Below, piece by piece: positions 3,003 through 64,000 of a stretch of 64,000 nucleotides of DNA. This DNA comes from Romanomermis culicivorax (Eukaryota; Nematoda; Enoplea; Mermithida; Mermithidae). The position numbers were made by a program, and so were the translations under genes. Position 1 is the first letter of the stretch; each line of letters begins with the position of its first letter. The stretch lies in the NCBI GenBank assembly GCA_963922205.1, contig CAWUHX010000256.1:452516-516515 (forward strand), read 5' to 3'. Under the pieces are notes generated by a model. The model was not told where the DNA came from and ran no database searches. It worked only from the letters and a program-made list of their open reading frames with translations.

Positions 3003-3470
3003 TTTACTCTTGGTTATATGCCTCAGTGTATCCTCTGAACTGAAATTATTGTTACGTTTGTTTTGTGCTGTGTCTTTGTGCAACTTTGCCCTAGTGGGCA
3101 ACTGTGTCACTGTTTGATACTTCAAACACAGTATTGATATTTCTTCACCACTCCACATGTTAGCCTTTGCCAATTCTTATTGCTTTGTATAAATTAGCTT
3201 GAGAGATCTTGACTTCAGCAATCTGGATTACCATTTTCATGATTTTTGACATACACGATTCGATTTTCTTCAGAATTTTTCATTCATTTTCGACACCTTC
3301 TACCTGGACTGATTTTGACTTCTGACTTTTACTAACTCAACACTAAGTAAATTTCTGTGTATTAAGGCTCGAACCTCTTTGAATCAAAACCTGCTTCTCA
3401 CACATGGTCTAAAATCAATTTATAATTGGTGGATTACTAATTGAATCAATGTCTCAATTTTTCAATATAA

Positions 3471-3948: not shown

Positions 3949-4439
3949 ATAACATAACATTCAGAAAATAATTTTTAACTTACCCAATCATTGGTGTCAG
4001 ATGAGAAACTCATATAGTGTTCCAAGACTAATGCGCAGACATGCACAGCAAGAATTTCCAGTAACAAGTGTCCTCAGACTTTTCATTGGCAGCAGTGTGG
4101 GGGGGAGCTGAAAAAAGCTCCACAAGCATGTTTTTTTCATCATACAAAATATGTGCAAAAAGTCATCAAAAATTGAAAAAAATTCATCTGGAGGGTTTGA
4201 CATTTTTTCAGGCCAACAGGGGATGTTCTCGGTCTCAGGTAGGAGCACTTACCTTCTAATGCCTATGTGCATTTATGCTAATGAATATATACAACTGATC
4301 CTTGTGTATTAAATTGCCTTCCTAGTTCCTTATGAATAGACTATCTGCACCTTCAGCCTGGGACTTTACTAATTGTTAGTTATGGAAGCAGGAAAAATAG
4401 AAGGATGTGTCAGACTACTTAATAAAGACTACTAGTGCT

Positions 4440-5033
4440 TCGACGAATTTTTTTCATTGGAAAAAGACTCTTTTCTGGGAAATAATCATTATTTAGTTTT
4501 CTCTATACAGAAGGATGCCAATTGCTTCTTCAAACATTTCTCTTTGTATATTGTGTTTATCAAAGACAAAAGAACCAACCTCAGAGCAGTATCAAATTCA
4601 AAAGACATGGTTTGAGAAATATTATTTTCAAATGAAAATTCTCTTCGTCTTAAAGTTTATTCTATTCTAAATCATAAACCATTCATCTAAGATGAATAAT
4701 TTTCGTAAACGAGTTCAACTCAGCAGCAACAAAATTTTGAAGACATAATAACCAATTGAGGAACGTTGTTCAAGGCATGTAGATAATGTTCTCACATTAT
4801 ACACATAATGCCATCATGGAAGCTCATTTTGTGCCGACTGATAAACAGAGAGAAGGTATTTTGCCGCAAAAATAAGGCAGTGGCGGTATCTTAAGACAGT
4901 TGGAAATTTACAAAATAGTATAATGAAAAATGCGTCTTTATTAGCATTGTATGCATAAAGTGAGCAGTTTTTTCACCTCGCGTGAATAGGACACTATAAC
5001 TACTAATATATACCAAGTTTATAATTGACAATC
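4440..5033. repeat. Duplicated 3' flank, copy 1
   Basis: This non-coding block is a diverged copy of about 5400-6130. Shared landmarks include the GCCATCATGGAAGCT segment and the sequence leading into the terminal exon. With the exon copy at 5034-5230 it forms a tandem unit of roughly 1 kb made of a terminal M16 exon and its downstream flank. Confidence 0.75.
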
Positions 5034-6139: not shown

Positions 6140-37899
<31,760 letters not shown>

Positions 37900-39189: not shown

Positions 39190-41800
39190 GGATGTCTACA
39201 CTGGTGCAGAATTTTTTGAGTCATGTGTTTGAGGACATCAGATACAGAAGCATTTCGGTGCATTTGAGAAGGTCATAATCTAACTTTAATAATCATTATT
39301 CATATTCTAGCTCATGACGGGTTTCTAACATGTCTATCTTCACTTATCATAGCTAGCACGTTAGTGCTAGACTATAATATGTTTCATTTTGGGCAAGCCG
39401 ATTTTCACCTTTAAGACAAGATTTCCAAAAAACTATAAAACATCCATAGCTGAAATTTGGCAACAATATAGAACTCGATGCGGGCTGCAATGTGGTACCG
39501 CTTAGAATACTGTAGAAATACTGTAGCTAAAGTTATGAGACAAACTAAAGTACTGTTTTGCCACCTTTTCATATCTAACCATTGTTGTAACTGATTAGCT
39601 CGATTGTGGTATTAATGTCTTCAGTAGGGTCATATCTCGGGACCACCACGAAATTTTTTCAAAATATGCAAATGCGACCTTATTTCAGTGTAAAGAAAAA
39701 TCTCAAAACTCCAACTGGTAAAAACTTTATGAATATTTAGTCTTTCTAGACGATTCTTGTTCCGTTGGATGCAGCTCATCGAGTTGTACAAGATACTGAC
39801 TGGCGGTTGGAAAATTTGCAGGGTAAACTTAATTATCATAGAAAATATGCAGATTTGGCCGAGTTGGAGTAGATGACTGCACAAATATCTCGAGTTGTAT
39901 AAGTCGTAAAAAGCTAATTTTTTCGATAGCCGAGTAAAATGCCCAGAGTAAACCACCTTAACATCTAGTATGTGTAGAGTAAAGAAAGTTTGAACAAAGC
40001 GAAAATGTCAATTTAAAATTTTTTTTTGAGATATTCAGATCTTTTGTTGCACCATTGAAACGAGCTTGTTTTTCTAGCCCCCAGTTTTGATATTTGTTTT
40101 TTGTAAAAATTTATAGTACGTTAGAGATTTGCATAAATGTTGTTTACAAAAAAAATTTTTTTCGATTCATTTATTCTAAGTAGCACCGTTGCAAAGAGCG
40201 TATTTTGTTGTCCCTGATGCATATTTTTGTTCTTCGAAATATCTCAACCTACGCTAAAAATTTGCATAAATGATATATGCCAAAAAAATGTTAAATTTGC
40301 CAGATTTTAGTGGCGTTCGTACTATACTTCGAAAATACACTTTTTCAGTAAAAATTTTTTACACCTTCCTTGCAGGAGCTTGAAAGTGCGATATTTATCT
40401 GAAAATGCCAGGAAATGGAAAAAAGGAGAATATGTTTTTCCTTTTTGCTTGTTTCACTGGCTTAAAAGTTCGATAAGGCCTCCCCATCATTTGATTTCAG
40501 CAAAATTCTAACTGAAAAAAACTTTCCATTTCCTGAGAAACATATACGCGCCCAGTTTTTTAAAAAACAAAACGTTTTTAAGCCTATGCACATGAAATTC
40601 ACTTGTCTTGTAGCAATTTTTACAATCTACATGATTACTGTATGTACAATACATACTTCGTCTTCATGATAGAACACATGTGATGCTCCTAACTGCATGT
40701 ATAAAATTCATTACAGGCTTGTACAAAAAAGTGCTATAATTGACAAGAACTATACAGAACAATAACCATTCTCTAATACTAGGAAGTGGCAAAAGATGAG
40801 TATGTTTCTCCTTGTCCCACATTTCACTGAGCATAATACTATACTTCGTTTCCGAGAGCCTGGTCGTATACTTACCGTATTTTTGATTCACACGTATTGT
40901 TTTTTCCGAGTTTAAAACGTGGGAATCTAAATTTCTAATACGATTAATGCTAGTTCAAACTTATTTGAAACTATGCTTTAGCCAATTTTACTCAAATAAT
41001 GTTCGCCAGTCTCTCAAAAATCGCCGTTAACAAAAATTTTCTGTCTACCAGCAATTAAGTTTTCGAATTTGTTCTCAAGTTGTGTAAATTCGTTGTCTTG
41101 CGAATCAGGAATACTTTGGATTTACCACCTGCTTTTCGGAAACAAGGTATATACAACTGCATTGTACACAGTAATGAAAAATTCTAACAAAGAATGGCAA
41201 ATAAGTAATTACAAAGATTTCGGGTTTTTCATTAAACCAAAGTTTTTTCATCTGTAAAAATCAACTTTAATGACTGATACTGAAATTTTTCAAAGATTTG
41301 TCCATTTTTGCGCAGAGGCATTTTCAGAAATGACTAAAAAATAGGGCGCGTATATGTTTCTCAGGGAATGGAAAGTTTTTTTCAGTTAGAATTTTGCTGA
41401 AATGAAATGTTGGGAGGCCTCTAATATCGAACTTTTAAGACAGTGAAACAAGCAAAAAGGAAAAACATATTCTCCTTTTTGCCATTTCCTGGCATTTTCA
41501 GATAAATCATTTAATCTTTAATAGCTAACATCATCTTAAACGTACTATCTCATGTTTTAATCGGTAATCCTCAATGTTTTATCCCGATATTTAATCGAGC
41601 TTTGCATTTTTTCCTTCACACATTTTTTGAGAGAGATCAATACCTTAATCTCTTTTGAAGCAATTGTATCTTTTTTCAACGTAAAACGAATCCAAAAGCT
41701 TCATGGACGTATTTTTCGGAGATTTCCACCCTTCTTACTCATATTTTTTGGGCCAGGTTCATGAGAAGTTGCGAATAAATTACTGGTTTAAAAATTTTTC
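39190..41800. mobile_element. Relative of the hAT interior, split by a 2.15-kb insertion
   Basis: 39190-39350 and 41506-41800 match consecutive parts of the hAT interior at 30980-31460 (for example GAATTTTTTGAGTCATGTGTTTGA and AAAAGCTTCATGGA). Between them lies 39351-41505, bounded on both sides by ATCAT (39346-39350 and 41506-41510), consistent with a 5-bp target duplication. The terminal TAGAGATG repeats of a hAT element are not found here, so only an internal fragment remains. Confidence 0.65.
40393..41507. mobile_element. Long inverted-repeat element inside the 39351-41505 insertion
   Basis: The arms at 40393-40553 and 41344-41507 are inverted copies of about 160 bp, beginning ATTTATCTGAAAATGCC and ending GGCATTTTCAGATAAAT. 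The central 790 bp has no recognised protein. The right arm coincides with the right edge of the larger insertion, but the left arm does not reach the left edge, so the insertion may be nested or the left part may be other sequence. Confidence 0.7.
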
Positions 41801-42734: not shown

Positions 42735-43025
42735 GCACCGACAATTGAGGGCCGGACCATTGAGGGCCGACAATTGAGCCTCGACAACTGAGCGCTGGAC
42801 AATTGAGCGCCGTGACAACTGAGCACCGAAAACTGAGTGCCGACAACTGAGCGCCGACAACTGAGGGCCAGACAATTGAGCGCCGACAATTGAGCACCGA
42901 CAACTGAGCGCCAGACAACTGAGCGCCGTGACAATTGAGCGCCGTGACAACTGAGCGCCAGACATTTGAGTGCCGACAACTGAGTGCCGACTATTTAATG
43001 CATTATAATTGAGCGTTTTTTTCAT
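42735..43025. repeat. Minisatellite of 12-16 bp units (GACAACTGAGCGCC)
   Basis: About 20 units of GACAA(C/T)TGAGCGCC with spacers of variable length (CCAGA, CCGTGA) fill 290 bp. The overlapping minus-strand open frames (repeating SALNC/CRRSI patterns) are artefacts of the repeat. It ends about 110 bp before the gag start. Three ATGATTATCTACC(A/G)T units follow at about 43060-43105. Confidence 0.9.
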
Positions 43026-43132: not shown

Positions 43133-44743
43133 ATGAATCCTTTATCGGTGGAAAATGAAGGCAACCGACCTACGACCTCGACAGCTGTCGAGAGGGAGGA
43201 TGACGACGTGATATTATCGGCCAATGAAGATCAAATTTTTAAAATTCTGTCGTCGATGAACCTCCCGAAGAGAGGCGAATACTTACAACCGCCTATTACG
43301 GGACAGGCGTGTCCATTACCGAAGATGAACATTCCGGTTTTGGATCAACAGCAGCGCCGGCCGACAAATAAACCTGCCCAATTATTCGATACGTACCATT
43401 GATTATATTGGAACAATGAGCGGGAAGAACACCGCGAAAATCCTCGAAAGAGCTCATTGGAGGATAAACTGGACCAGATCATGAACAGGTTAGATGTTTA
43501 TGATAGCATATTCGCCAACATTGCTAATACAGGTTCACAGAAAGCCGGTAAGGCAAATGAACCGAGGCAAAGCAATGCTGGCTGTTTGGAACAAGGTGGT
43601 GCTTTGAAGTTTGAGCAGGGCCAGGAAGAGTTAGTGTGGCAAAATGATGGTATCACTCTTCAGCAAGACTGTAGACGGAAAGACCAAAAGTCAAGTCTCG
43701 GTCCTAAAGAGCAGTATATGGCTCATTTGCCCACTACCTCAAAAGTGGAGCAGAGAGTGAGTACTTGTGGTTTTGACGAGGGCGTAAAAAACCCAAGTCT
43801 GATAAATCCAACTATCTCACAACAGAGCAGTTGTATTAGGGGAGAGACCCCAAGTGTCAGGCAGCAGGTTATGCCTACAATGATTCCGATTGATCCAGCT
43901 TTATGGGTCAATCTGGCTCAAGTAGGCCCAACTGTCTATGACATTGAAAGGGCGATCAAACCGAAATTACTGCAATCTGATATGCCAAGTAAACAGGTTC
44001 TTGCTTTTCTAGTGGAGCTAGAAGGCGAGTTTCGAAAGAATACTCCCGATGAGGTGAAACTAGAAGCATTAACCCGCTTGTCAAGGGACTTGCCGAAAGA
44101 ATTGGCTGAAGAGTCAACGACATATAGGGAGGCCGGAGACAAGATTTTGAATTATTGTGCTCCAGATTGCAACCTGGACATGCTCAAACGGGATTTATTG
44201 GATATTAAACAGGAACCCGATGAAGCAGCAACCAAATTTCTAAAAAGGGTTCGAGCACATGTGAATCTCGTTTATCAGAGTGAAACAAAGGAGTTTAAAA
44301 ATAAAGTAATCATTGAAACCTTTTTCTATAGAAGTTCTTTAACTTATCAATTAGAACTGCAGAAAGACATAGCAAAATTCAAAAATTGGTATGATCTTTC
44401 GCAGGCAGTCTATGAGATAGAGTTAAAGTACCGGAATGCGATTAGAACATTTGGGCCAAGAGAGCAGCCCATGATGATGAATACGGCACAAGCAGAAATT
44501 GCTGAGGAGCAGCAAGCCGATGTGAATGTAATCCAAAGGCCTTATGAAAGCGCCCAAAAGCGCAATAGGGACCTTAGAAGACCAAACACAGAAAGGCAAA
44601 CTCCAATGCAATCTTTGCAAAATCAATTGATAGATATAGCAGATGATGAAGTACTTGAAGTACCTCCTCAACAGGCCATAATGCCTCGGCAACAGCCTGT
44701 TGAGGAGCCAAAAAAAGGACTCACTCATGGTGGCTTTATCTAA
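43133..44743 (+). pseudogene. gag: Retrotransposon Gag (capsid), one in-frame TGA
   Basis: The frame starts MNPLSVENEG and is open except for TGA at 43400-43402; coding continues in the same frame on both sides (before: FDTYH; after: LYWNNERE). Residues from about 43930 to 44450 form an all-helical stretch typical of Ty3 capsid (FLVELEGEF, FLKRVRAHVNLVY, YDLSQAVYEIELKYR). It assembles the virus-like particle that carries element RNA. No CCHC zinc knuckle is visible. An RG-rich segment follows instead in another frame. Confidence 0.85.
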
Positions 44744-45210
44744 GGAGTTTATCAAAATGGCACAATGTTATGAAGAAATTAGGAACTCGACCAAAGCTCA
44801 AGAGGAAGCCATAACTGCTTTAACTCAGAAAGTTGATAAAGCGAAAGCAAAAAGTCAACAAGAGGTTCAGCAGGAAAATGGTGTACTTACCACAAAAATA
44901 ACACTCACAACACGATTGACTGTAGAACCTTGAATTTTTATAAAGGTCTACAAAATCGTGGAAGGGGTGGAAATAGTGGAAGAGTCTTTGGAAGAGGAAG
45001 TCCTAGAGGAAGTTTTGGAAATTTCCGAGGTAGAGGAAATTTCAGAGGTAATTTCAGAGGAAATTAGGGAGGAAGTAGAGGAGGTTTTGGTAACAAAGGC
45101 GAAAGGGGAGCTTATCAAGTTTTGTTTCCTGACGACGAGGCGAAAAATTTGCAAGAGTATGCCGAGTTTCAGGAATACGTAAAGTTGAAGAAGCTCAGGG
45201 AGCAGATGAG
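44700..45210 (+). pseudogene. Gag C-terminal segment with RG-rich nucleic-acid-binding box
   Basis: A run of seven A residues at 44710-44716 marks a change of frame from Gag to a coiled-coil-like stretch (KMAQCYEEIRNSTKAQEE). A second shift near 44930 opens a frame with GRGGNSGRVFGRGSPRGSF and further FRG repeats. A TAG at 45065-45067 interrupts it before GGSRGGFGNKGERGAYQ. The RGG box probably replaces the zinc knuckle in RNA binding. The frames could be indels or sequencing errors at homopolymers. Confidence 0.65.
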
Positions 45211-45222
45211 ATTGTTACAGGC

Positions 45223-45930
45223 TTGTTACAGGCTACCACCCAGCTGATGTTTCCAGGACCAAATCTAATGGACCAACAACCAGTAATCGCAAATCAGAGT
45301 TCAAATACCTTGTTGGTTCCACAAAAGGTAGTTAGTCCATCGCAAGCCTCCGGGCAGACAGACCAACTGCCAACTAATGGTGTCAATAGTGTACAGCAGG
45401 AACCAATAATGGAGATGAAGTTGTGTGGTTTGCCTAATTGTGCAATGGAGAAAGAGGAGAATGTGCCAGAAATGGAATGCAGTGCTGAGTATGGTAGAAA
45501 GGCAACTGCAGAGGAACTGGATATGTTAGCAAGATACCCTAGAACACAGCCATTTCACATCAAAGTAACTGTGTGTTCGACTACTGCAAAGGCACTGATT
45601 GACACGGGAGCTCAGTGTTCAGTGATGTCGGCTGATTTCTTGAAAAAATCACTTGGACTGGAGTATACAGTGTACCCTAAGATCCTAAAAGTCACTGTCG
45701 CCAATGGTAAAGTAGTTAGTGCACATGGTTACGTTCAATTTCAAATGCAATGTGATTATGGCCGTTTTCCAGTTAAAGCTATCGTAATACCAGGGTCCGC
45801 AGAAGATTTGATATTGGGAACAGACTTCCTGGCCCATCCGGAAGTCAATACGGTAAAAGATTTTGGAAAAGGTTCAATGACTATGATGGGTGTAAAGAAA
45901 AGTATTGATTTGTTAACATCGGATAAGTAA
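45223..45930 (+). CDS. Retroviral-type aspartic protease segment of pol
   Basis: ALIDTGAQCSVM contains the catalytic DTG (Asp codon at 45601). EDLILGTDFL is the second conserved retropepsin element. The protease matures Gag and Pol. A TAA at 45928-45930 separates it from the RT frame, but coding continues in the same frame, so the stop is a single mutation. Confidence 0.88.
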   Translation: MLQATTQLMFPGPNLMDQQPVIANQSSNTLLVPQKVVSPSQASGQTDQLPTNGVNSVQQEPIMEMKLCGLPNCAMEKEENVPEMECSAEYGRKATAEELDMLARYPRTQPFHIKVTVCSTTAKALIDTGAQCSVMSADFLKKSLGLEYTVYPKILKVTVANGKVVSAHGYVQFQMQCDYGRFPVKAIVIPGSAEDLILGTDFLAHPEVNTVKDFGKGSMTMMGVKKSIDLLTSDK

Positions 45931-45942
45931 GCAATTCCAATA

Positions 45943-47412
45943 GTGGGGATGCATAATCCGATGATAGCAGAATCAATACAAGAAAATTCTATTGAAGAAG
46001 ATCAATGTTCGACAATTGAGCAACTGGAAGATCCAGTTCCAGTAGTGGCTTGTAATAGAATTTACATTCCACATGGAACAGATCAGCTAGTGAAAGCCAA
46101 ATTGTGGAATAAATCTTCGGCAAATAGAATAAATGGAATCATCGTAGAAGGTGATGATTCAGAAACGAGATTCAGAATAGACGATACTATAGTTGATGGT
46201 TCAAAGGAGGACTTTGTATTGATGATCTCCAATAATACGGGTTCCGGTTGCCTGATAGAACCTAATCAAGTTCTTGGCTACTGTAACTCCGTATTTCGGG
46301 GAGAATCAGGTGTATCAATTTTGCAGGCAGGAAATGGTGGAGAAAGTAGCCTAGAGGGCATTTTCGATGCCAAGGAATCAAAATTCGATGGAGTTGTGTT
46401 TCTGGAAGCATTGTACAAAATGACCTCTAAAGCTACAGTGTCAGAGGAACAGAAAGAGATGGTGATACAGCAACTCGTGAAATACCAGGATGTATTTAGC
46501 CTACCTCATGATCCTCTGACAACTACTCCCCATCTTACTTGTAAAATTAATACAGGTGATGCTAGCCCTGTGGCAAAACATTACTACAGAGCTGCCATTG
46601 AACGCCGACCATATATCAGGCAACATGTGCAAGAAATGCTAGACAAAGGAGTCATAGAGCCATCAAGATCGCCCTGGGCGGCGCCATTATTCCTAGTAGG
46701 GAAGAAAGATGGGTTGCTCAGGCTGGTTGTTGATTTCAGAGGCTTTAACGAGGTCACGAAGGATGATCGATATCCAATACCAAGAATGGATGATTATCTG
46801 GACTGCCTCGGGAGAGCAAAATTTTATATGACTCTTGACCTTAAGTCTGGTTATTGGCAAGTGCCAATGGAAGAAGGCAGTAAAGAAAAGACTGCTTTCC
46901 TGTGTCAAGAAGGGTTGTTTCAGTTCAAAGTAATGCCCTTTGGACTGAAAAATGCACCAGCCGAGTTCCAGAGGATGATGGAAAGAATCCTTCATCCTCA
47001 TGTTTGGAAGATATGTCTAGTTTATATAGACAATATCATAGTGTTCTCGAATACATTCGAGGAACACGTAGAAAATTTGAAATCGGTCCTGGATGCTCTG
47101 AGACGAGCCCAGCTTACACTTAAACCAGAAAAATGCGAATTCCCACCAAAGAAGGTACATTTTCTTGGTCATATTTTGGATTCTAATGGAATTTCGCTCA
47201 ATCCGAAAAAAGTGCAAGCTATTATTGAGTTTGAGTTCCCGGACTGGGTCAAGCATATGCAAAGGTTTCTCAGAATGCTCCAGTGGTGTAAAAAATTTAT
47301 ACCACATCTGGCAAAGCACGGAATAAATGGCTCGTTACAGAGGATCATTACAAAGCATTTAATGCTTCGAAAGAAGCACTGGTTTCGGTTCCATTTCTCA
47401 GGTACCCAGTAA
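45943..47412 (+). pseudogene. Reverse transcriptase segment of pol, active site altered to YIDN
   Basis: RT motifs appear in order: VIEPSRSPWAAPLFLVGKKD, LVVDFRGFNEVT, FYMTLDLKSGYWQVPM, TAFLCQEGLFQFKVMPFGLK and VYIDNIIVFS. The last should be YxDD; the second Asp is Asn here (AAT at 47032-47034), which removes a metal ligand. After KKFIPHLAKH the frame is lost around 47320-47335, and the equivalent of the thumb-RNase H link continues one frame over. It converts element RNA to cDNA when intact; this copy should not. Confidence 0.92.
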
Positions 47413-48257
47413 TGGATGGCTCAGCCCAGTTCATTCTACAAACTGATGCCAGTGGAACAGCACTAGGGGCTGTTCTGTATCAAGAGTCTGGAGACGACAA
47501 GTGGGTCATAGCATACAATAGCCCTGTGCTAAAAGAGGACGAGAAAAAGCGGTGCACAACTGAAAGGGAGTGCCTGGCGATTATCTACGGCCTCAAAATC
47601 TACCGGCACTATTTATTGGGGCAGAAAGTATTGATTAAGACAGATCACAGACCACTGTTATCAATGAAAGTCAACACTACAACAAATGACAAATTGAAAT
47701 GGTGGTATGCGATCATAAATCAATACAACCACAAGTTAGAATACGTGCCCGGTAGACAAAATGCTATGGCTGACTTTCTCTCTAGAAAGGATGAGCCAGA
47801 GGATGTGGTGAAATCACCACCAAAGTGGGAAAGCATGTTCAAATCGGATGTTGTTTCCTCCGATGTCAAAGGAATAATAAAAGAACAACAGGAACAACAA
47901 CAAATTTCCTTGGTGGCCGAGAGGAACAACATCCCCGAAAAGAATAAATCCCACAAGGATAAAAAGGAAGGAGAGGATGCTGGAATTAGTCCTGAGGACG
48001 AAAGAGAGCATTCTAAAGGAGTAGAAGCGGTGGTAACCCGAAGCAAAGCTCGTGTTTCGGAAAAGGTACAGAAAGAAAATCAGGAAACTGATAAATCTGC
48101 AATACCTAAGAAACAAGACAATGTGCAGTGGTTACACCCTAGAAAGGAAGAGGAATTTGATAAACCGGGAACATCAGGAGAAAAAGAGATACCTATTGGC
48201 CTGATCCCAGATGACTTGATGAGCAAACTGCAAAAAGCAGACGAAAGCTTAAAGTAA
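47335..48257 (+). CDS. RNase H and linker segment of pol
   Basis: The segment EDHYKAFNASKEALVSVPF leads into LQTDASGTALGAVLYQ, TERECLAIIYGLKIYRHYL, KTDHRPL and MADFLSR, the conserved Ty3 RNase H blocks with catalytic Asp, Glu and Asp. An acidic, lysine-rich linker (about 47800-48250) follows. TAA at 48255-48257 interrupts an otherwise continuous frame into integrase. Confidence 0.85.
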
Positions 48258-49523
48258 ATCTGGGATAGATTAGGTGAAAATAGCACCACGAAGTATCACA
48301 CTGGGTTCTATGGAGAAAATGGTGTATTGTATAGGGAAACTGAGGCAGAAAGCGAAGACCAATTGGTCGTACCCGCAAACCTCAGGGACTCTGTACTGCA
48401 TCAGCATCATGGTGCTGTAATAATGACACACCAGGGTTTCAAAAGAACTCTGAGTGTCATGAAATTGCACTATTGGTGGCCTGGCATGGAAAAAGATGTC
48501 AGGGAATGGATAAAATACTGCGTTGTCTGTCAAATGGCAACTGCAGGAAAGCCATCTATTCCTCCCTTGATACCCATTGTGCCACAAGGTCCATTCGACA
48601 TTGTATCTGTGGATATAGTAGGAATTTCGCCTTTGGGAGAAAGAATGCCTTATGTTATAGTTTTTCAGGACTATTTCACAAAATGGGTTGAAGCTGAGAT
48701 GATCCCAGATCAATCAGCAAATTCAGTTGTGAATGCGTTCTTAGAAGCTATAATATTTAGGCATGGAACACCAATGAAACTCCTAAGTGACAATGGATCT
48801 TGTTTTACTTAGGATTTAATGAAATCAGTTTGTGATTTATTAGAGTGTAAGAAGATCTTCACTACTGCTTACCACCCTCAGGGTAATGGTATGGTAGAGA
48901 GGTTCAACCAAACTCTAATAAAACCACTGAGAAAAGTAGCTATCGGTGAACCCGATAGCTGGCCAAGATATCTCAAATCAGTAGTCTTTGCCTACAATGC
49001 TAGCCCACACGCAGTGACGAAGGCCTCGCCATTTGCATTGTTTTGGGGCCATGAGGCAAAGTTCGGGATGAATTTGTCAAAAGCCCTTAAAATAGTAATG
49101 CCCATGAATTATGAGGCATACAAATTCATCCTAACAGACCATTTAACCAGGCTTTATGGTATTATTGCCGAAAATATCTGGAAAGCAGCGGAAGCTAGCA
49201 AAAGATATTTCGACAAGAAAATTAAAACCTCGGTTTTTAAAGACAATGATTGGGTACTTCTTAAAGTTGATAAGCAAAAGAAACTAGGCTTAACTTGGGA
49301 AGGACCCTTCATTATAACTGATGTTTCCAGGTTAGAAGATAATGTCATAACAATTGCAGGTTATGATAATCTTTTCCTACGGCAAAAGGTTTCAGCAAGT
49401 AGGCTGAAAATTTTTCGCTATGAGAGTACACGATGGCAGAACTACGTAAAAAATCGATCGAATCGTCTTACTGTACCTTCGCAATTAGCGGAGAGTAGTG
49501 CGACGCCCGATGTAGTTTCGTAG
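48258..49523 (+). pseudogene. Integrase segment of pol, one in-frame TAG
   Basis: The zinc-binding HHCC region is HQHHGAVIMTHQG ... CVVCQMA. The catalytic core is DDE: Asp in VSVDIVG, Asp in LLSDNGS and Glu in GNGMVERFNQ. A TAG at 48810-48812 falls between the second Asp and the Glu. The C-terminal region has LGLTWEGPFII, the GPF/Y-like module. It integrates cDNA. No chromodomain follows; the frame ends 49521-49523. Confidence 0.9.
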
Positions 49524-49952: not shown

Positions 49953-52900
49953 ATGGGTACGCCAAACGAGTGTACTCGGACGTACAAGGCGACGGACGAC
50001 GAGGTCCAGTTTGGGGAGCCGCACCCGCGGCAGAATAATCGATATTTTTTGGGCGACGGTAAGCAACCATTTTTTATTTGTAAATAGTTGGGTAAGAAAA
50101 TGAGTGGAGGTTACGCTTGTCAGGGGTGTTTTGTAAGACTGTTTCTGTGCCCTTTCTCGGACGAGCTACCAACTGGGAGTTGAGAAATAAACACAAAAAT
50201 TAGGTAGAAGGGGGTGGCAAGGGCCGAACCTAGGTGATCCGAAAAAGACTTCGGTCGAATTAGGTGATCCCATTAGGGGAGGTTTTTGTCATTCCCGCTC
50301 CCTCTGGTTTCCGCAAAGCGGCGAAGAAGGGGATTAGCAGAAACTAGTCGTGGAGATCAGGGTTGTGATCGATTGAGCACTGATCGAGTAGCAAGAGTGT
50401 GTTGGGTTAGAGTGAAAAAACACCTAATTTCACATATTTTTGCCTATCAATTTTGGTTTCTATAAAGGGACACCCAACAGCCAGAAAGGCTAAAAATCAA
50501 GTTCCCGCTCCAAAAATTTCAAAAATTCAAAAGTTAAAATGGTGTTCTGCACGAAAGTGATAGAGTTTTCCCCAAAGGTTAAAGGAGTAATAGTGGGTAA
50601 AATTACCCAAAGAGTTCAAAAAGGGTCACGAAAATGCACATAAAGAGTTAGTAGAGTATGTCTGTGTAAAAATTTAAATGTCCTGGATTTTTAGACCACA
50701 ACATCCGTCGGGCAATGTGGATAGCAGAGTTAAAAAGGTGGTTTTTTGCCCTTTTTGAGTTCTGGCCGACCAACCCTATCGAGCCGATAATTGTTCCTAT
50801 GGGAAGTGTGGAAAGGGTGGTAAAACACCTAGAAAGCAGCACTCTCCGAGGCATGACCATTGTCGGCTTCGATGTAGAGAAGGTGAACAGCGAGGACGCT
50901 AGAAAGCTATTTAGGTGGGGGTTCGAAAACGAAAAAGGCAACCAGTTTGCCAGATTAGTTTCATTCGCCCACCTAAATGGCAAAACATTCGTAATCGATT
51001 TAACGTTGCTGCAAGAGCAAGAGTGGAACATCTTGTTACACTTTTTACCCTCAGCGATGTTGTTAGTGGGTTATGCCGTTTTGGAGGACATAGTTTCAAT
51101 TATCAATGTCCGTGGATGCGGAAAAAGCACCGATGGTCGCGACATGTCTGACGCGATTAGATGTAGTATCAAAGATGGAAATCTTGGAAGATACTATGAT
51201 CTAAGCGTCACGGCAAAGCAGATCATGGGAAGCGAGATTACCAAATCCAGGAAAGCAGGAATCTGCCCTGAGACATTGAAATTGAAAGGCCTCTTTGCTG
51301 AAATGTATTTGGCTGACATTGGTCCTCACCAGACTGATTTCAGTCTTTTACGTAATAGGCAAAGTGTGGCCAAAGAAAGAGTCCCCGAAGAGATACTGCA
51401 GTACGCTGGTATGGATGCCTTCTTTTCATTGGCAATTTTTATGGGGGCATTTCACTATGGGTATGTGATTGAGCTATGTGGGGGAGTTGCCAACTTTCCT
51501 CACGATATAGTCGATCCGTATCAGATTGAAATTCTTTCATATAAATTTTATCAGTTTTACTCATATATAGTTATGGACTATAAACTAGGAAACTTTGTGG
51601 GTACACCTGATATTGTGGTTAGGCAGCCTGAGGCCACCTACCACATGATGCGCCAAGAAATGTATGCAAGATGGGTCACACAAGTGCAAGAAATAGGGCC
51701 TAATTTTCGTTGCCATCGGGACATCTGCAATCCTAGGAAAGGGAAAGAAAATTTGCCATGGCGAGGCATCTATCCAGGTGCTTATCGTCAGGGTAAAAAA
51801 TTAAAGCCCAATTCCTATGATGAGGCAAGTGATCCCGACGACGACGAAATGATTAGGCCTGAACAGCGCTTGTCGGCCAAGGATAGGTTGCGCCTACAGT
51901 TAGTAGAGGAAATGGCGCAAGGGAAGCAGTATCATGAGCTCACACAGCCAGCGTCCTTAGTTTGGTTCATTGACACAGCAAGGAAAGTTGTCAAACTACC
52001 CCAAGATCGTCAAAAGCAAGCACTAATAGATGCCCTAAAAAATCATCTGGTTCATGTGCCTATTGATATTGATCCTGGGGTGGGTTATTTTGACAAAGAT
52101 CACTGGGAGCCTCAGCTGGCGGAGTATGCTAAGACATTTGAGGAAAAGCAGTTCTCGGAACTGCAAGCCACTTGTGCCTTAGTCCCACTGGCCTTTCACG
52201 TGATCTGGCCCCATAGCAGAAAGGAACTGGACTTTGTAATGACCGAAATGTTTAGTTACAGGTTCATTACATCGTTCAGCCCAGAGCTACAGGGCAAGAT
52301 AAAGGAAATGGCTTGGTGGTCAGACGAAAGGTTATCTCAATATCTTTTGTTGGCGAAAACTCTTCCAAACATAGAGTATGAGGTACCCCGAAAAGGTGCT
52401 GGAATATATGTTTGGATGAATCGATTCGGATTTATGCCGATTCGATTAAGATTATGGAAGAATGCAGATGTGTGCGCGCCAATCCCTGGCAGCCCTGACA
52501 CAATAACTATGGACAGTAAGAGCTATAGCTCAAATCCGTATTATTATGTTAGGTTCTACCATATCAAGCTAGCACAAAGAACGCCTTCATTAAGATATGG
52601 GGTAACCTGGCAAACCAAAATCGATAAGGTCCGAGACGTCTATGGGTCATTGGCGGAAAATAGGGAGTATACTATAGCCTTCCCTAAAAAGACCTTTGAC
52701 TACTATAGACCTCTGGCATCGGATTTACTGGGAATTCAGCACACATATAGTTATAAAACGGGTGAAGGTACTGTCACCAAATTAGCTGGCAAGATTAGTC
52801 CCACCAAGACTGATAGTCTGAAAGGCGAGGACAAACAGCAGGCTGATGTAGGTGTTGTTAAATTTCCGATATTTTCAGGTCAGGAAGTCCAAACGTCGGA

Positions 52901-52973
52901 AAGCGAAATCTTCAGCGATGCAGTGGGACTGCCGGCTGAAGATGAATCGCCAGACCAAGGACTTGAGGATTAG
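49953..52973 (+). CDS. DEDDy 3'-5' exonuclease (WRN/RNase D-like) protein of a retroelement
   Basis: Two exons: 49953-50058 (35 codons plus one base, starting MGTPNEC, donor GACG/GTAAGC) and 50695-52973 (acceptor TTTTTAG). Phases agree and the product is 794 residues up to the first stop. The exonuclease domain covers about residues 80-290: GFDVEK gives D95 and E97, GYAVLED gives D167, and LQYAGMDAFF gives Y272 and D276. All five DEDDy residues are therefore present. LKLKGLFAEMYL matches the family helix before motif III. The C-terminal 500 residues resemble nothing I know, but are conserved in the two decayed copies in this window. Predicted to remove nucleotides from 3' ends; the natural substrate is unknown. 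Confidence 0.8.
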
Positions 52974-54791
52974 GACGTGACTGAGCTGTTGGAAGAAGAG
53001 CAGCAGCAAGAGCAATCGGTTCCAGCAATGGAACTGATGCAAGCTCAAACTACTCAGACGCAGTCGGAACTCAACAACCAGCATTGATTAGAAGTTATTC
53101 TAAAGATGGAAGAGGAGGCGAAGGAAAGAATTCGACTACAACGCCAATTAATGGAGGAAGAATTGGCGAAGAATGCAGCCATTTACAACGAAAAACTTCG
53201 TCAAATGTCAATTCAATTTGGACTCCAAAAGGACGATACCGCAGTGCCCGAAGTGGAAGCAAAAGTAGTCGTATTAGAGCCACCATCGCCGATGAAGGTA
53301 GACGACGATATGGCCTCCGATAAGCTCGTTATTGACGAAACGAAAGCGGAAACGCCCGACTCGGAGATGATGGAGAGCAAGGAGGTAATAGCGTTCTCAG
53401 CTGATGGGGGTGTTCCAGGATTGTATTCAGCCAAAGTCGTTCAGAGTATGAGAGAAAAAGGCTGGAACGACGAGAAAATATTATTTATGGCTGAAAGGAA
53501 GAAGAAAATGAGAGTGAAGGAGAAGGAAAGGAGGAAGAAGGGTATTAAGGGAGCAAAAGCAGAAGCGAAAGAGGAAGACAGTAAGACGGCGACTTCGTCC
53601 GTCATATCTACCTCAACTTCTACGATTACCTCGACTACTACCACCACTTCTCAAATTACTTCTACTTCAACTGGAACACTGTCATTGGCTACATCTTCAG
53701 TGGCAACTGCAACTCAAGATAGTACATCCAAGACTAGTCAAACTTCAGGCGCAATAGGCCTTGCGATGGGGAAACCGATGCCGAAAGGCCAGACAAAACC
53801 CAGCAAGGACCAAAAACCGGGAGTGGCAGCTAGCCAAGTGCAAGTGGCTGGTCCTAGTAAAATTAAGCAGGCACAGGCTGCTCAGGCAACTGAAACGCCG
53901 GAAGTGACTGCAGAAAAATTCAAGGACAGTCTCTTGGACTTCTGGGGTGTCTATCAACCAAAAGCCAGAGAATCTGGCCCAATATCATTTTTCACGAGTG
54001 CAGTGGCCAAGTATTTTGCTTTCGAGCAATTTGAGTCAGAAAGGGTTTTCTTCATGGTGAATGATGCGGTTAGGGAAATCTACCAGGATTATGAACAACA
54101 GTTCAGAATCCAGGGAGCTTTTCTCTATGATCGGACCAATTTACCTGAAGAGCTCTGGGAAAGAGTCATGTATGACTTTCTCCCCAGGTGGCTCAAGATG
54201 GAGAGAGCACCTGATGTGTTTTCCTCGGTCAGGTATTTGGTTATGATGCTATTCCTCATGTTGGAATGCGCCCCGCTATCCCCGATGCATATTGGAAACA
54301 TTTATGCCAGGGCGATGGTGGCGGCGAATAACCGACTGTTGAGGGTGTATAATAACCACGATACCCCCTTGGAATACAAAAGGGCCTTTCGATCTGTGAT
54401 GCTTAGTAGCAATCACCAGGTTGGATTGATGGGAGCCAAAAGAAGCGCCAGTTCAGACTTGCAAAGCTCTGTTAAATTCAGTAAAGCTCAAGACGGAAAA
54501 ACTGGTGCTACTTTGAAGGTTCCCGGACCTCAAGGTCAGGGTCAAGGCCAAGGAAGCCAGGAAATAGCTCGGAGTACACAAGGAAAGGTGCAAAAGACTG
54601 GTAACTGCGGCCGAGGTCAGTTTCAGTTCCACAACCCCAACAGGGGTGGTCGTGGAGCAGTGCCTGGCAGAGGTGCCACGCCTCAGGTGCAAGGTAGAGG
54701 AGGCCAGCAGGGCCAACGGGTATGGAGACCTTACGGAGGTCGTGGAGGAGCCCATAGAGGGGCGCAAGGAGGCGGCGGGCCGCAACAGTAA
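52974..54791 (+). CDS. C-terminal coiled-coil and RGG protein, in frame with the exonuclease
   Basis: The same frame continues past TAG (52971-52973) for 37 Glu/Gln-rich codons to TGA (53085-53087), then through a Met at 53106 to 54791. The 53106 frame has a charged coiled coil ([19 protein letters not shown]), a Lys-rich and Ser/Thr-rich stretch, a helical domain (about 53900-54450, [16 protein letters not shown] and [11 protein letters not shown]), and an RGG-rich tail ([20 protein letters not shown]). The tail suggests RNA binding. The helical domain could be capsid-like, but I cannot show it. It may be read separately, by readthrough, or be broken by two mutations. Confidence 0.7.
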
Positions 54792-55488
54792 ATTAGCTGC
54801 AAGGTCTTTGGCCTAAAAATATTGTTTTTGCATTTATTTTGGATAAAAAACACAAAATACAAAAAAAATATAAAACCACAAAAATACAAAAAAAAATATA
54901 TAAAATACAAAATACAAAAAAAAAATTTTTTTATTTGTTGCGCGCTTTAAATTTCTATTCGTTTTTCGTACCTCGCATTGCCAAAACGGGCATGTACAAA
55001 AATTTATTTTTTCACTTAATCTCGGTTACTATCTCGCCTTACTTTTCTTTTTTTTTGCTCAATCGATACGCCGGGATTTGATTTTTTTTTGTGATACTCG
55101 TACTAATGTACATATTTTGTAGTTTATTTAGATATAATAGAAAATTTTTTTTTTGGTGAGGGCAACGTTGGAAAAAAGGCGGAGACTTCACGGCGAAACA
55201 CACAACCGGAAAGAGATAGACAGATAAATGTTCTGTCCCTGGCATCCAGCGTATGGCACGAAACGAAAGGTTAGGGGATGGACGGCAACTGAAGACCCTC
55301 GGCCCTGGTGCAGGTCAAATTTGATTCCGTGTTAGGCCAACAAAGTCAAGCCGACGCGGAGTCGTCGATCCATCGGCGTCCAGACCAAGAGGTAGCGCAC
55401 CCGGACGGCCTTGTGGACATTCCGGTATGCCTAATAAAAGACTTGACGTAAGAGGGTGGTCATTCGGAAAGCTTTCCACAAGGGGGCA
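54792..55488. other. 3' untranslated or spacer DNA of the exonuclease gene
   Basis: A-rich run at 54840-54930, then mixed sequence ending in the purine run CAAGGGGGC at 55480-55487, which resembles the tract before the copy 2 3' LTR. No coding sequence supported. Confidence 0.4.
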
Positions 55489-55855
55489 TGAATGACCAAA
55501 AAGGTTCAGAAAACTGCTTTGACTGTATTAGGGCCTGAAAAGGTTCCAAAATTGTCATTGTCGCATTATATGAATCTTTTTAACCTCCCATTGGTCAGTT
55601 TCGAGGCTCGAGGGATGTCGGGGATGGACATAGTCTATCTCCAGGTTGCGAAGAAATAGCCAAAGTTGACGCAAAACGCGTCGACGCCGATTTGCATAGA
55701 CACCGCGCATAAATATGCCGGTCGTCTATGTTTTTGGTCATTCTATGATTGTTTGTTTATTTTTAATAAAAGATAAATCGGCGGCCCAGTAGGGCAAATT
55801 TTATATATTATTTGTTATATTATTTTTGGTGGAGCATTTCGGCCCAAATACAACA
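55489..55855 (+). repeat. Candidate 3' LTR downstream of the exonuclease gene
   Basis: Starts TGAATGACC immediately after CAAGGGGGCA and ends AAATACAACA, like the LTR ends of copy 2. CATAAATATG near 55705 could be a TATA region, and AATAAA at about 55765 a poly(A) signal. No matching 5' LTR could be found in the window, so this rests on ends and position only. Confidence 0.4.
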
Positions 55856-59376: not shown

Positions 59377-61906
59377 ATTTTTACTCACAGCTATGTGACA
59401 GTTAAGCACATTGTATTATGTGCAAACTTTTTATTCACTATTACATTGCACTGATACAAATTTTCGCATTCGTACAGTTAGGCAAGAGGGTTAGTAAGGT
59501 GGAGAGCTGAAGTGCAAGTGAAATTGCTCAACCACTCCTTGAATGATGGAGATAATTAATTCTGCTTCCATTTACTGTATACACTTCCCAATTTCCGACC
59601 GATTTTAAGGCAGGTTTTTTGCTGTAAATTTCACTAATTTAATTGATATTATTATATTTTGAATTATTATGTGCAATGTGTCATTTTTTAAATTTTGGAA
59701 TTGAAATTTTTCCTGTCATTATATTTTCCAACTTTTCAAGAAGCCCAATGTTAACCAATTCATCAGAGTCAAGGCCATCTTTTTAAACAATCGATTTTGT
59801 TTTTAGAAGATGTGATATAGTTTTAAAAATTTTCATCTCAAATCATTTCTTGTTTAACTTTTTGGGGAAATTTAAACATTCGAAACGAAATAACAATCAG
59901 GAATCAGCAAAGTAGGTTTGCATGAGATTTTGACCTTCAAAAAATCTGGAAGACTTGTCCCAGCACTTTAAATAATGAACTACTGTCCCATAATTGGCAT
60001 AAAAGTAGTTATATAGGCCAGTACCGGGTACACAGGAAACATAGGCACGCTCTGAGTGTAGTCTTCAAGGGCTGCCACTTAACGTGTGGGGCAGCACAGA
60101 GGGTGTAGGAAGTAAGTGACATTTGGGGGTTGAAGGTGCCTTGTGCAACTATCTTCCGATGAAGAGATGATGAGGGCTGCAGAGTTTCTATGAGAATCGT
60201 AGGCAGAGGGGCACTGTAGGTGCAGAGATGCTATTATTGGCACCCTGCTTTGGACGTAATGGAGCCTAGCACGTGGAGTGATTGTCCATGAATTCTGAGA
60301 GTTCAAGAAGATAGGTCAGTACCTCTGGTTCTGGTGTGGAATGCTATAAGTGCTAGAACCTTAGTTTTGCCTGAGGATACTGAGAGGGGGAGACCCAATG
60401 CAGCACAAAAGGGGTATGGCGACACAGGAGGGGAAGACCTCTACCCCCTCTGCCAGCCCGAGTATAAGATTGTTTACTTACTAGGGCAATGGGCTTAAAT
60501 TGATCTTTTAATACAACGAAAATGTAATGAAATGGCAATAGGGCATTCCGAACTATGAAGTATTATAATACAAGTGTGTAAGAGCAGACTCAATATTTAT
60601 ACAAGTGAGACTGGATGTGTTGGCCACTCTAGAGTATGGTAAGGGAGGCAGCTACAGTAATTGTCAATGGTCCTTGAAGGGAGAGACATCAATCGAGTTG
60701 GAGGCTGAAAATAGTTTGCGATGGTCATTCCAGTTGAGTGGAGGCCAGTGCTTGTGCATTCCTGTGTAGGAGAACAGGGAAAAGGGGCCACATATAGAAA
60801 GCCGACTCTGTTTGTTAGAGTCAATAAAAGAGACAAAAATAGATACTAAATGCCTTGGGGGCAGGTACAGATAAATACAAGTGTACTGTAAATAAAAACG
60901 AGCATACTGTATAGAAACCAATGTACTGTAGAATCACGTGGTTAGCTGCATGTGACAACCTCTTAAATAATATTCTCAAACAAAATCACATCAACAAATC
61001 TTATGGTGTTTGGGCACCCTGTTGATGTCAAAGTCGCGATCAGTAAGTCGACATGCAAATTGACAATGGAGGACTGGTGGCACAGACTATTCCCATAGCA
61101 ATGGAGCACCACAGAAAGAAGAAAAAGTGATGATGAAATCATTCATCATTTTTCATAAGATTATTTTGGTTTTTATGCCTGTGTTCATTAATAAACCTTC
61201 ATTCAGCAAACACGTCTTAAATTTCCATAATTCCTTAAAGGTACATCTGCCTTCTTTAACACTATTTGTTTATTTATTTAGTGCTTTACATTAGACTCAG
61301 TGTACAGTAAGTTACAGAGGGCTCTAGGCCCAGGCGTAGGTCTATTGCAGATGTCAGTTAGAAGGAAGACTATTCACTATTCTAGGGAAACTTTATTTGT
61401 CATTCCTTCCAGACGAATTACTTTTCTCCTGGGAGTCTATGAGAAGCCATTGTGAGGGCCCATTTAGAGGTAAGTATTAGTTGTTGTTGCCAGGTCTGGG
61501 CGTGAACTGTTGCACTATATCCAAGGCCTAGCCATGGAGAAGTTCTAACTAGTTTGACCAAACCTATCTTTCTTTAAACCCTAAGCAATGACCTATACAA
61601 CAGTGGTTGCATCGGGTTAATTCATAAACTTGAACTACAGGCTAAACTAATTGTCTCTTCTCTATCATCCACAGTGGATCTGAAATGTTTATTATGGATT
61701 TCTTGACATCTAAATACAAGTGAATCCTATGTTTTCATCCCCATGATTCATTTTTCTAACATACTGGAACCATAATTTAATGGAAATCATGTTAATTTTA
61801 TTATTATTCCATTCACTAACAAATTTCGGTTTAAGCACATCAGTTCTTATCTATGGCACCTTAATGCATTAATGTTGTAGCATTCTTTAAAACTTTTTGC
61901 ATTTTA

Positions 61907-62390
61907 TGTTAGGCTGCTGTGGGTAGACGATGATGTATCTGACCTTTGGGTTTATACAAAGGAAGTTGCAACAGTTCTGACCACAAGCCAACAATAACCC
62001 AACTACGCCAACACCAGAACTCTCTCTCACACAGATTACCAGATACACTCCAGTAGTTCACCAAACCTCAGGCAGAACACCTTGACACATACCTTAGGAA
62101 CTTCTAGCCAAGTGTCCAATCCTACTCTTAAAAATACTTTCCACTACACTCACAAAACTAAGCAAGTTACTGTCTCGACATTGTATTTGAAGAACAAGGC
62201 CAAGTTGTGGAATAATAAAAAAACAAAAAAAAACCAAAAACCAATAATAATAAATAACCAAAAAACATGGAAACAGTAGCATCACAAATCTATGCTAATT
62301 TGTCTTTTCTTCCTTGCCACTCTTCCCGGTGTCCACAGCCTGCACGACAACACCAGGAGTTGAACATCTGCACCCACAGTAACCACAACA
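61907..62390. mobile_element. Solo LTR A, right-hand copy
   Basis: Same insertion as 2531-3002, carried by the duplicated segment, with TTTA on both sides (61903-61906 and 62391-62394). It keeps a short stretch (CTCCAGTAGTT region) that the left copy lacks. Confidence 0.75.
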
Positions 62391-62855
62391 TTTACTCTTG
62401 GTTATATGCCTCAGTGTATCCTCTGAACTGAAATTATTGTTACGTTTGTTTTGTGCTGTGTCTTTGTGCAACTTTGCCCTAGTGGGCAACTGTGTCACTG
62501 TTTGATACTTCAAACACAGTATTGATATTTCTTCACCACTCCACATGTTAGCCTTTGCCAATTCTTATTGCTTTGTATAAATTAGCTTGAGAGATCTTGA
62601 CTTCAGCAATCTGGATTACCATTTTCATGATTTTTGACATACACGATTCGATTTTCTTCAGAATTTTTCATTCATTTTCGACACCTACCTGGACTGATTT
62701 TGACTTCTGACTTTTACTAACTCAACACTAAGTAAATTTCTGTGTATTAAGGCTCGAACCTCTTTGAATCAAAACCTGCTTCTCACACATGGTCTAAAAG
62801 CAATTTATAATTGGTGGATTACTAATTGAATCAATGTCTCAATTTTTCAATATAA

Positions 62856-63333
62856 TGTTAGGCTGCTGTGGGGTCAATAATATGCAACAGTTCTGACCAC
62901 AGGCTAACAACAACAACAAACACAAAACTCTCCCAGACGTTTCACCAGATACTCGCCAGAACTTTCACCAAACCTCAGGCAGAACACCTTGGCACGTACC
63001 TCAGGAGATCCTACCCAAGTCTCCAATCCTGACCTTATAAACTCCAACCCCTACGCTCACAGAACAATACACTTACGGGTTAACGTGTATTAAGTGACGA
63101 CTGGCGACGCCAACAAAAAATAATAATAAACAAATAATTATAAGAAGGGCGATGGTGGCGTCGCTCCATAAACTGAATCTTTTTAACAATGATAAAAAGA
63201 CATAAACATCGCAAAACAGTGGCAGCATAAATCTATGCAAATTATCTTTCTTTTTTCGCCACTTTTCGCCGCGTCCAACTGCCTGCGCACGGACGCCGGA
63301 AGCTGAACACCTGCACCTGGAGCCACCCCAACA
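62856..63333. mobile_element. Solo LTR B, right-hand copy
   Basis: Same insertion as 3471-3948, carried by the duplicated segment, with ATAA at 62852-62855 and 63334-63337. Confidence 0.75.
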
Positions 63334-64000
63334 ATAACATAACATTCAGAAAATAATTTTTAACTTACCCAATCATTGGTGTCAGATGAGAAGCTCATAT
63401 AGTGTTCCAAGACTAATGCGCAGACATGCACAGCAAGAATTTCTAGTAACAAGTGTCCTCAGACTTTTCATTGGCAGCAGTGTGGGGGGAGCTGAAAAAA
63501 GCTCCACAAGCATGTTTTTTTCATCATACAAAATATGTGCAAAAAGTCATCAAAAATTGAAAAAAAATTCATCTTGAGGGTTTGACATTTTTTCAGGCCA
63601 ACAGGGGATGTTCTCGGTCTCAGGTAGGAGCACTTACCTTCTAATGCCTATGTGCATTTATGCTAATGAATATATACAACTGATCCTTGTGTATTAAATT
63701 GCCTTCCTAGTTCCTTATGAATAGACTATCTGCACCTTCAGCCTGGGACTTTACTAATTGTTAGTTATGGAAGCAGGAAAAATAGAAGGATGTGTCAGAC
63801 TACTTAATAAAGACTACTAGTGCTTCGACGAATTTTTTTCATTGGAAAAAGACTCTTTTCTGGGAAATAATCATTATTTAGTTTTCTCTATACAGAAGGA
63901 TGCCAATTGCTTCTTCAAACATTTCTCTTTGTATATTGTGTTTATTAAGGACAAAAGAACCAACCTCAGAGCAGTATCAAATTCAAAAGACATGGTTTGA

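What the first reader, a model, noticed from the sequence alone, without database searches (positions are those of the whole stretch)
49953..54791. A DEDDy 3'-5' exonuclease protein carried by an LTR retroelement family
Seen: a two-exon gene with all five DEDDy residues (D95, E97, D167, Y272, D276) and WRN/RNase D-like context, plus two decayed homologues in the same window, one of them between LTRs with a polypurine tract. Known: LTR elements encode Gag, PR, RT, RH, IN and sometimes Env; I am not aware of a family with a DEDDy exonuclease. Inference: the exonuclease works for the element, for example by trimming cDNA or RNA 3' ends or countering host small-RNA or DNA repair factors, and may have been captured from a host RNase D/WRN-type gene.
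Basis: partly seen in the sequence, partly recalled or inferred. Interest (0 to 1): 0.9.

Follow-up and report, generated by a model that had tools for sequence, protein, structure and literature searches.

The report
DEDDy exonuclease gene in nematode retroelements
Virus-like jumping genes in what is probably a mermithid roundworm carry, behind their usual enzymes, a gene (broken in the copies seen here) for a protein that looks like an RNA/DNA-trimming enzyme fused to a probable RNA-binding tail; a similar trick was described before in bdelloid rotifers, so this is a distant new variant rather than a first.

Summary
Confirmed, with corrections. No Pfam DEDD model matches, but a 26-row profile of the family matches an RNase D/PolA-exonuclease profile (score 36.8, E 1e-4; 0 of 296 shuffles reach it) with the five catalytic positions in register. 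The gene is multi-copy: 27 related proteins found, 26 named Romanomermis culicivorax, in two lineages about 22% identical. It lies behind a decayed Ty3/gypsy-type gag-pol; three R. culicivorax gene models also put pol upstream of it. Another copy is open across the two stops that here separate the exonuclease from a coiled-coil-like/RGG-rich half, so the natural product is probably one protein of about 1,400 residues. Two decayed copies diverged under purifying selection (dN/dS about 0.13). New here: a second animal phylum, the fusion, a shared phase-1 intron, the selection signal. Structure models failed, activity and role are untested, matched LTRs were not found, and the genome search tool did not complete.

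The parts
43133..45100 (+). gag-like region of the element (ATG 43133, main open stretch 43403-44743; further on, in the same frame behind several stops, a zinc-knuckle-like CX2HX4HX4C and an RG-rich stretch)
   Evidence: no significant Pfam gag hit; knuckle recognised by eye
45133..49523 (+). pol: protease, RT, RNase H, integrase in the Ty3/gypsy order; decayed (in-frame stops, a frame change between RT and RNase H, RT motif reads YIDN)
   Evidence: Pfam gag-asp_proteas 4.2e-12, RVT_1 1.2e-34, RT_RNaseH 4e-28, Integrase_H2C2 1.1e-19, rve 3.7e-11
49953..50058 (+). exon 1 of the exonuclease gene, followed by a phase-1 intron
   Evidence: weak similarity to exon 1 of lineage A gene models (2 and 3 of 1000 shuffles for P0006 and P0004), not significant for the window's own A copy (71 of 1000)
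50059..50694 (+). predicted intron GT...AG
   Evidence: same phase as the predicted intron of the A copy (27296-27385)
50695..52973 (+). exon 2: DEDDy 3'-5' exonuclease-like domain (about 50790-51560) and a middle region without known relatives; stop TAG 52971
53088..54791 (+). ORF continuing in the same frame: charged coiled-coil-like start (by eye), then a G/R/Q-rich C-terminal tail; probably the C-terminal half of the same protein
   Evidence: P0028 spans the junction; P0022 joins exonuclease and tail
55479..55488 (+). purine-rich tract before the putative 3' LTR
   Evidence: the octamer CAAGGGGG occurs twice on the + strand (here and before the lineage A 3' LTR) and once on the - strand
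55489..55855 (+). putative 3' LTR (TG...CA, AATAAA at 55765); no 5' partner found in the window
   Evidence: inferred from tract and ends only
23547..26484 (+). lineage A exonuclease relative, decayed copy 1
26485..27020 (+). LTR-like repeat directly upstream of decayed copy 2
   Evidence: 66% to 10472-11062, 64% to 34983-35411
27157..30204 (+). lineage A exonuclease relative, decayed copy 2: exon 1 27157-27295, predicted phase-1 intron 27296-27385, exon 2 from 27386, stop at 28085
34930..35434 (+). purine tract and lineage A 3' LTR

Best explanation
The window (probably Romanomermis culicivorax or a close mermithid nematode) holds a decaying Ty3/gypsy-type LTR retroelement whose third gene, behind gag and pol, encodes a DEDDy 3'-5' exonuclease-like domain fused to a coiled-coil-like/RGG-rich C-terminal half. 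SHOWN: family assignment by profile comparison with catalytic residues in place, a family of copies, pol-exo order in the window and three gene models, an intron of the same phase in two lineages, past purifying selection between two copies. INFERRED: the gene is translated from a spliced subgenomic mRNA, as stated for rotifer ORF3s, while unspliced RNA is copied, so the intron persists; the RGG half holds the protein on the element's RNA; the exonuclease trims or removes RNA (less likely cDNA) 3' ends in that particle, to the element's benefit. Probability that it is a genuine element-borne DEDDy-family gene 0.85; that it was catalytically active 0.65; that its main job is 3'-end trimming in the RNP 0.4.
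For: Profile vs RNase D/PolA exo: score 36.8, E 1.1e-4, 168 columns; the D-x-E, D and Y-x3-D of E. coli RNase D (printed alignment) align with D/E/D/Y/D; shuffles 0 of 296; a second, overlapping alignment 36.0, 0 of 299. EXD2 is the best of 177,635 PDB sequences for two overlapping profiles, over motif III (E 0.55, 0.49: suggestive only). Copies: 27 proteins in three searches, 26 named R. culicivorax, P0018 without an organism name. Pol upstream in P0001 (72% and 81% to the window's own pol pieces), P0011 (RNase H, Pfam 1.5e-13) and P0026 (shares P0011's pol linker). P0028 matches the window on both sides of the two stops, 80% over 25 residues before and 80% over 123 after, and is open between. 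Codon-position differences 45/20/78 over 155 codons, dN/dS 0.13 in frame, 0.88 and 2.8 in the other two frames.
Against: No DEDD family among Pfam or NCBIfam hits of any member tested (window pieces; 20 Pfam scans of 18 distinct proteins). AlphaFold models of both lineages are poor (mean pLDDT 43.9 and 49.0) and Foldseek finds nothing at E <= 0.001. Lineage A alone and B alone are near background (3 of 299 and 3 of 295 shuffles reach them); against the RNase D-like or the PolA-like part alone the joint profile falls to 23.2 and 24.2; the 4-row profile A1 finds nothing in PDB. D of motif I is N or H in 5 of 14 rows, D of motif II is changed in 8 of 24. Gene predictors here also bridge to host genes (myosin in P0001, astacin in P0017), so pol-exo models are not proof of one transcript. 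The A copy at 27157 starts 136 bases behind an LTR-like repeat with no pol between, so the gene's place in A elements is not settled. No 5' LTR found for the main element.
Confidence: 0.7

Rival explanations
1. Counter-silencing enzyme: the exonuclease shortens or destroys the host's Dicer-made small RNAs or dsRNA made against the element, helped by its RNA-binding tail, as the arenavirus nucleoprotein exonuclease acts against innate sensing.
For: Passages of PMC4323106: no PRG-1/Piwi and no 5'-triphosphate small RNAs in R. culicivorax, RRF-3-type RdRP in clade I, Dicer-made transposon small RNAs in T. spiralis. Arenavirus ExoN takes part in suppressing innate signalling (passages of PMC7968707). 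Exonuclease joined to an RGG-rich tail.
Against: No direct evidence; arenavirus ExoN is DEDDh, not DEDDy.
Confidence: 0.25
2. Catalytically dead RNA-binding module: the DEDDy fold is kept only for binding RNA (as the rotifer paper notes for Maelstrom and EXD1) and acts as a second nucleocapsid.
For: D of motif I changed in 5 of 14 rows, D of motif II in 8 of 24; RGG tail.
Against: At each of the five sites most rows keep the residue; the window's B ORF, P0002 and P0003 keep all five. Whether the changed rows come from dead copies was not tested.
Confidence: 0.2
3. Separate non-autonomous LTR element: the exonuclease/RGG gene has its own LTRs and only by chance lies behind gag-pol at 43-49 kb.
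For: The A copy starts 136 bases behind an LTR-like repeat with no pol between, and has a purine tract and LTR behind it.
Against: The stretch between pol and exon 1 shares no sizeable repeat with the rest of the window; three gene models with pol upstream, one with this very pol lineage.
Confidence: 0.2
4. Chance motifs in an env- or gag-like ORF; not an exonuclease at all.
For: No Pfam hit, poor models; each lineage alone is marginal.
Against: Joint profile: 0 of 296 and 0 of 299 shuffles, five residues in register.
Confidence: 0.1

Closest known systems
DEDDy ORF3 of bdelloid rotifer LTR retrotransposons Juno and Vesta (Rodriguez, Kenefick and Arkhipova 2017, PMC5408684; passages and Discussion seen)
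   Same: RNase D-like DEDDy gene as an extra ORF behind pol in LTR elements; ORF3s said to be expressed from spliced messages; acquired at least twice; role unknown
   Different: Different phylum; here joined to a coiled-coil-like/RGG-rich half (the paper says its DEDDy-like ORFs lack CC and TM domains); [quoted passage not shown] The rotifer proteins were not in reach, so no sequence comparison was made
DEDDy ORFs of Terminons/Athena Penelope-like elements (PMC5408684; passages of PMC6431247)
   Same: retroelement-borne DEDDy gene
   Different: Penelope-like RT, not an LTR element
Dada DNA transposons with a DEDDy DnaQ-like domain (passages of PMC3706591)
   Same: mobile element with a DEDDy exonuclease, proposed to process 3' ends during transposition
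   Different: DNA transposon; the domain lies inside the transposase
Cellular DEDDy enzymes: RNase D, EXD2 (and MUT-7, WRN, recalled)
   Same: catalytic residues in register with RNase D; EXD2 first but not significant in PDB
   Different: 17% identity in the profile alignment; no Pfam match
Arenavirus nucleoprotein exonuclease (passages of PMC7968707)
   Same: analogy only: exonuclease joined to an RNA-binding protein
   Different: DEDDh type, unrelated virus

Membership tests
DEDDy (RNase D-like, DnaQ-fold) exonucleases | DxE, D, Y-x3-D residues in order in a homologous domain | tested here: met
   (joint profile; each lineage alone only marginal)
DEDDy (RNase D-like, DnaQ-fold) exonucleases | match to a curated DEDD family model such as PF01612 | tested here: not met
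   no DEDD hit for 4 window pieces at E<=10, nor in 20 scans of 18 distinct proteins (E<=10, E<=1; one of the 18, P0028, is the tail only)
DEDDy (RNase D-like, DnaQ-fold) exonucleases | RNase H-like fold | tested here: inconclusive
   models of mean pLDDT 43.9 and 49.0, no Foldseek match at E<=0.001
DEDDy (RNase D-like, DnaQ-fold) exonucleases | metal-dependent 3'-5' exonuclease activity | not testable with these tools
   bench assay needed
LTR retrotransposon with DEDDy ORF3 (Juno/Vesta kind) | Ty3/gypsy-type pol upstream of the DEDDy ORF | tested here: met
   window; P0001, P0011, P0026
LTR retrotransposon with DEDDy ORF3 (Juno/Vesta kind) | matched LTR pair enclosing the DEDDy ORF | tested here: inconclusive
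   B element: putative 3' LTR only; A copy: flanking repeats 64% alike
LTR retrotransposon with DEDDy ORF3 (Juno/Vesta kind) | special kinship with the rotifer DEDDy ORFs | not tested
   rotifer sequences not in reach

The most novel reading that the evidence does not exclude
An exonuclease-RNA-binding fusion protein carried for long by mermithid LTR retroelements as a counter-measure to the worm's Dicer-based silencing, arisen independently of the rotifer case, so that DEDDy capture is a recurrent solution of retroelements in different animal phyla.
Probability: 0.2. Interest if true: 0.8.

Novelty: new variant of a known kind. Interest (0 to 1): 0.5.

Why it matters
It takes the DEDDy-in-LTR-element phenomenon out of bdelloid rotifers into nematodes, adds a selection signal that such a gene did something useful (the rotifer paper reports no significant departure from neutrality), and offers a fused architecture that makes the 3'-end-processing and counter-silencing ideas testable in one protein.

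Tried and rejected
Single-sequence family and PDB searches: no DEDD hit. Two AlphaFold jobs and two Foldseek searches: models too poor to use; not counted for or against. tblastn in phages and a viral-contig scan: nothing. A 5' LTR of the main element and a repeat between pol and exon 1: none found. Host identity: rests on protein hits only; copies differ from the R. culicivorax models, so a related mermithid is not excluded. PDB search with the 4-row alignment A1: 0 hits. Exon 1 of the window's A copy alone is not significantly like exon 1 of B (71 of 1000 shuffles). In one search I took wrong coordinates for that exon (and got 980 of 1000); one search uses the right ones. The synonymous distance is near saturation (pS 0.68), so the ratio is rough.
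Full report
What is there. From 43.1 to 49.5 kb the window encodes a decayed Ty3/gypsy-type gag-pol: protease, RT, RNase H and integrase have significant Pfam hits; in-frame stops, a frame change between RT and RNase H, and a YIDN motif in RT show that this copy is broken. Exon 1 49953-50058 and exon 2 50695-52970 join to 794 codons without a stop, and residues 95, 97, 167, 272 and 276 are D, E, D, Y, D as reported. The same frame runs on, with two stops (52971, 53085), to 54789; this second half has a charged, coiled-coil-like start (judged by eye) and a G/R/Q-rich tail (29 G, 10 R, 19 Q in the last 110 residues).

Is it one protein? R. culicivorax protein P0028 matches the last 25 residues before the first stop (80%, E 3e-8) and, further on, the second half (80% over 123 residues), and is open between. 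P0022 joins a piece of the exonuclease region (84%) to a piece of the tail (74%). So other copies read exonuclease and RGG half as one ORF of about 1,400 codons; the 794-residue product is most likely the truncated version of a broken copy.

Is it a DEDDy exonuclease? Simple searches say nothing: no DEDD family among the Pfam, NCBIfam or PDB hits of the single sequence. A search with the 767-residue ORF gave 1 protein (P0001); with a four-row alignment 25 (24 named R. culicivorax, P0018 unnamed). Two lineages: B (window gene; P0001, P0018, P0022, P0025) and A (the window's two decayed copies and the other 22 of those 26 proteins). A and B are homologous (P0002 against the window's B ORF: tblastn E 3e-17, 22.6% over 288 columns). 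A profile of both (26 rows) over the exonuclease region, compared by hhalign with a 19-sequence RNase D/PolA-exonuclease profile, scored 36.8 (E 1.1e-4, probability 56%) over 168 columns and put the DxE, D and Y-x3-D residues of RNase D onto those of the nematode family. Of 300 column shuffles 296 gave output and none reached it (best 21.1); reversed 16.2; RNase D against PolA exo, as a positive scale, 207. A 14-row alignment, which overlaps the first, gave 36.0, 0 of 299 shuffles. Against this: A alone and B alone are marginal (3 of 299, 3 of 295), and against the RNase D-like or PolA-like part of the reference alone the scores are 23.2 and 24.2. Profile searches of solved structures put EXD2, a DEDDy enzyme, first of 177,635 sequences, over motif III, but with E 0.55 and 0.49; a third profile found nothing. 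AlphaFold models are too poor to help.

Are the residues kept? Rows of the 26-row alignment with a letter at the site: D of motif I 9 of 14, E 13 of 14, D of motif II 16 of 24, Y 12 of 13, D of motif III 11 of 14; some rows are decayed or chimeric. The two decayed A copies in the window, over 155 codons of the domain, differ at 45 first, 20 second and 78 third positions, dN/dS 0.13 in frame but 0.88 and 2.8 in the other two frames (149 and 142 codons). The synonymous distance is near saturation, so the ratio is rough, but the codon-position pattern is plain: the coding sequence was under purifying selection for a good part of their divergence.

Does it belong to the element? For: it lies between pol and a putative purine tract and 3' LTR (55479-55855); the octamer CAAGGGGG occurs twice on the + strand, here and at the lineage A 3' LTR, and once on the - strand, a modest coincidence. 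P0001, a chimeric R. culicivorax model, carries pieces of this same pol lineage (72% and 81%) followed by the B exonuclease; P0011 carries RNase H (Pfam 1.5e-13) and then the A exonuclease; P0026 shares P0011's pol linker and then has the A exonuclease. That is 3 of 27 proteins; many of the others are short pieces. Against: such models also bridge to host genes (myosin in P0001, astacin in P0017); the A copy at 27157 lies 136 bases behind an LTR-like repeat with no pol between, so the A gene may also travel in pol-less elements; its flanking repeats are only about 64% alike; and no 5' LTR was found for the main element.

Intron. In both lineages predicted exon 1 ends with one base of a split codon (106 and 139 bases), the intron is GT...AG, and the join is open: 794 codons in B, 159 codons in A before the first stop. 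Exon 1 of B resembles exon 1 of the A gene models P0004 and P0006 (3 and 2 of 1000 shuffles) but not significantly that of the window's own A copy (71 of 1000). A shared phase-1 intron fits an ORF made from a spliced RNA while unspliced RNA is copied; Rodriguez et al. state that rotifer ORF3s are typically expressed from spliced messages (passage). No RNA data were seen here.

What is known. I saw the DEDDy/ORF3 passages and the Discussion of PMC5408684: DEDDy-like ORFs acquired at least twice in bdelloid LTR elements (Juno, Vesta) and present in Athena/Terminon elements; catalytic activity not shown; 3'-end processing or silencing suggested. Passages of PMC6431247 and PMC5718144 repeat the rotifer case; passages of PMC3706591 report a DEDDy domain in some Dada DNA transposons. 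Searches of the held open-access library: LTR retrotransposon + DEDDy + exonuclease (5 papers), Romanomermis culicivorax + retrotransposon (10 papers), exonuclease + LTR retrotransposon + ORF3 + nematode (1 paper), Terminons + DEDDy (2 papers), a five-term search (17 papers, 15 listed) and mermithid + gypsy + exonuclease (0 papers). In their titles, and in the papers of which I saw passages, I found no nematode case; I did not open most of the listed papers, and subscription journals are mostly missing.

How it most likely works. Committed reading: the fusion protein sits on the element's RNA through its RGG-rich half and trims RNA 3' ends (0.4). Main rival: counter-silencing (0.25); passages of PMC4323106 report no PRG-1/Piwi and no 5'-triphosphate small RNAs in R. 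culicivorax, RRF-3-type RdRP in its clade, and Dicer-made transposon small RNAs in T. spiralis of that clade. A dead, binding-only domain is next (0.2). These are inferences from architecture; nothing here measures activity.

Verdict. A new variant of a known kind, interest 0.5.

Noticed in passing
1-4615 and 59377-64000: The two ends of the window are 98.7% identical direct copies over 4.6 kb, running off both ends: a tandem or segmental duplication with a 59.4 kb step, a giant terminal repeat, or an assembly artefact.
   Followed up: no
40393-41507: Inverted repeat arms of about 170 bases, 93% alike, 0.8 kb apart: looks like a non-autonomous DNA transposon with long terminal inverted repeats.
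   Followed up: no
42738-42995: Minisatellite with a 14-base unit CCGACAACTGAGCG just upstream of gag, where the 5' LTR or leader of the element would be expected.
   Followed up: partly
10472-11062: Lone copy of the lineage A LTR-like repeat, 66% to 26485-27020.
   Followed up: partly
26484-26485: The lineage A LTR-like repeat begins where the coding similarity of decayed copy 1 stops, as if it had inserted into that gene.
   Followed up: no
22636-23330: Nearly perfect ATAG microsatellite, 174 units.
   Followed up: no
30511-30693 and 32307-32402: Two arrays of CGGGTCCGGGTCCAAAATTTT-type repeats 1.6 kb apart, between decayed copy 2 and the lineage A 3' LTR.
   Followed up: no
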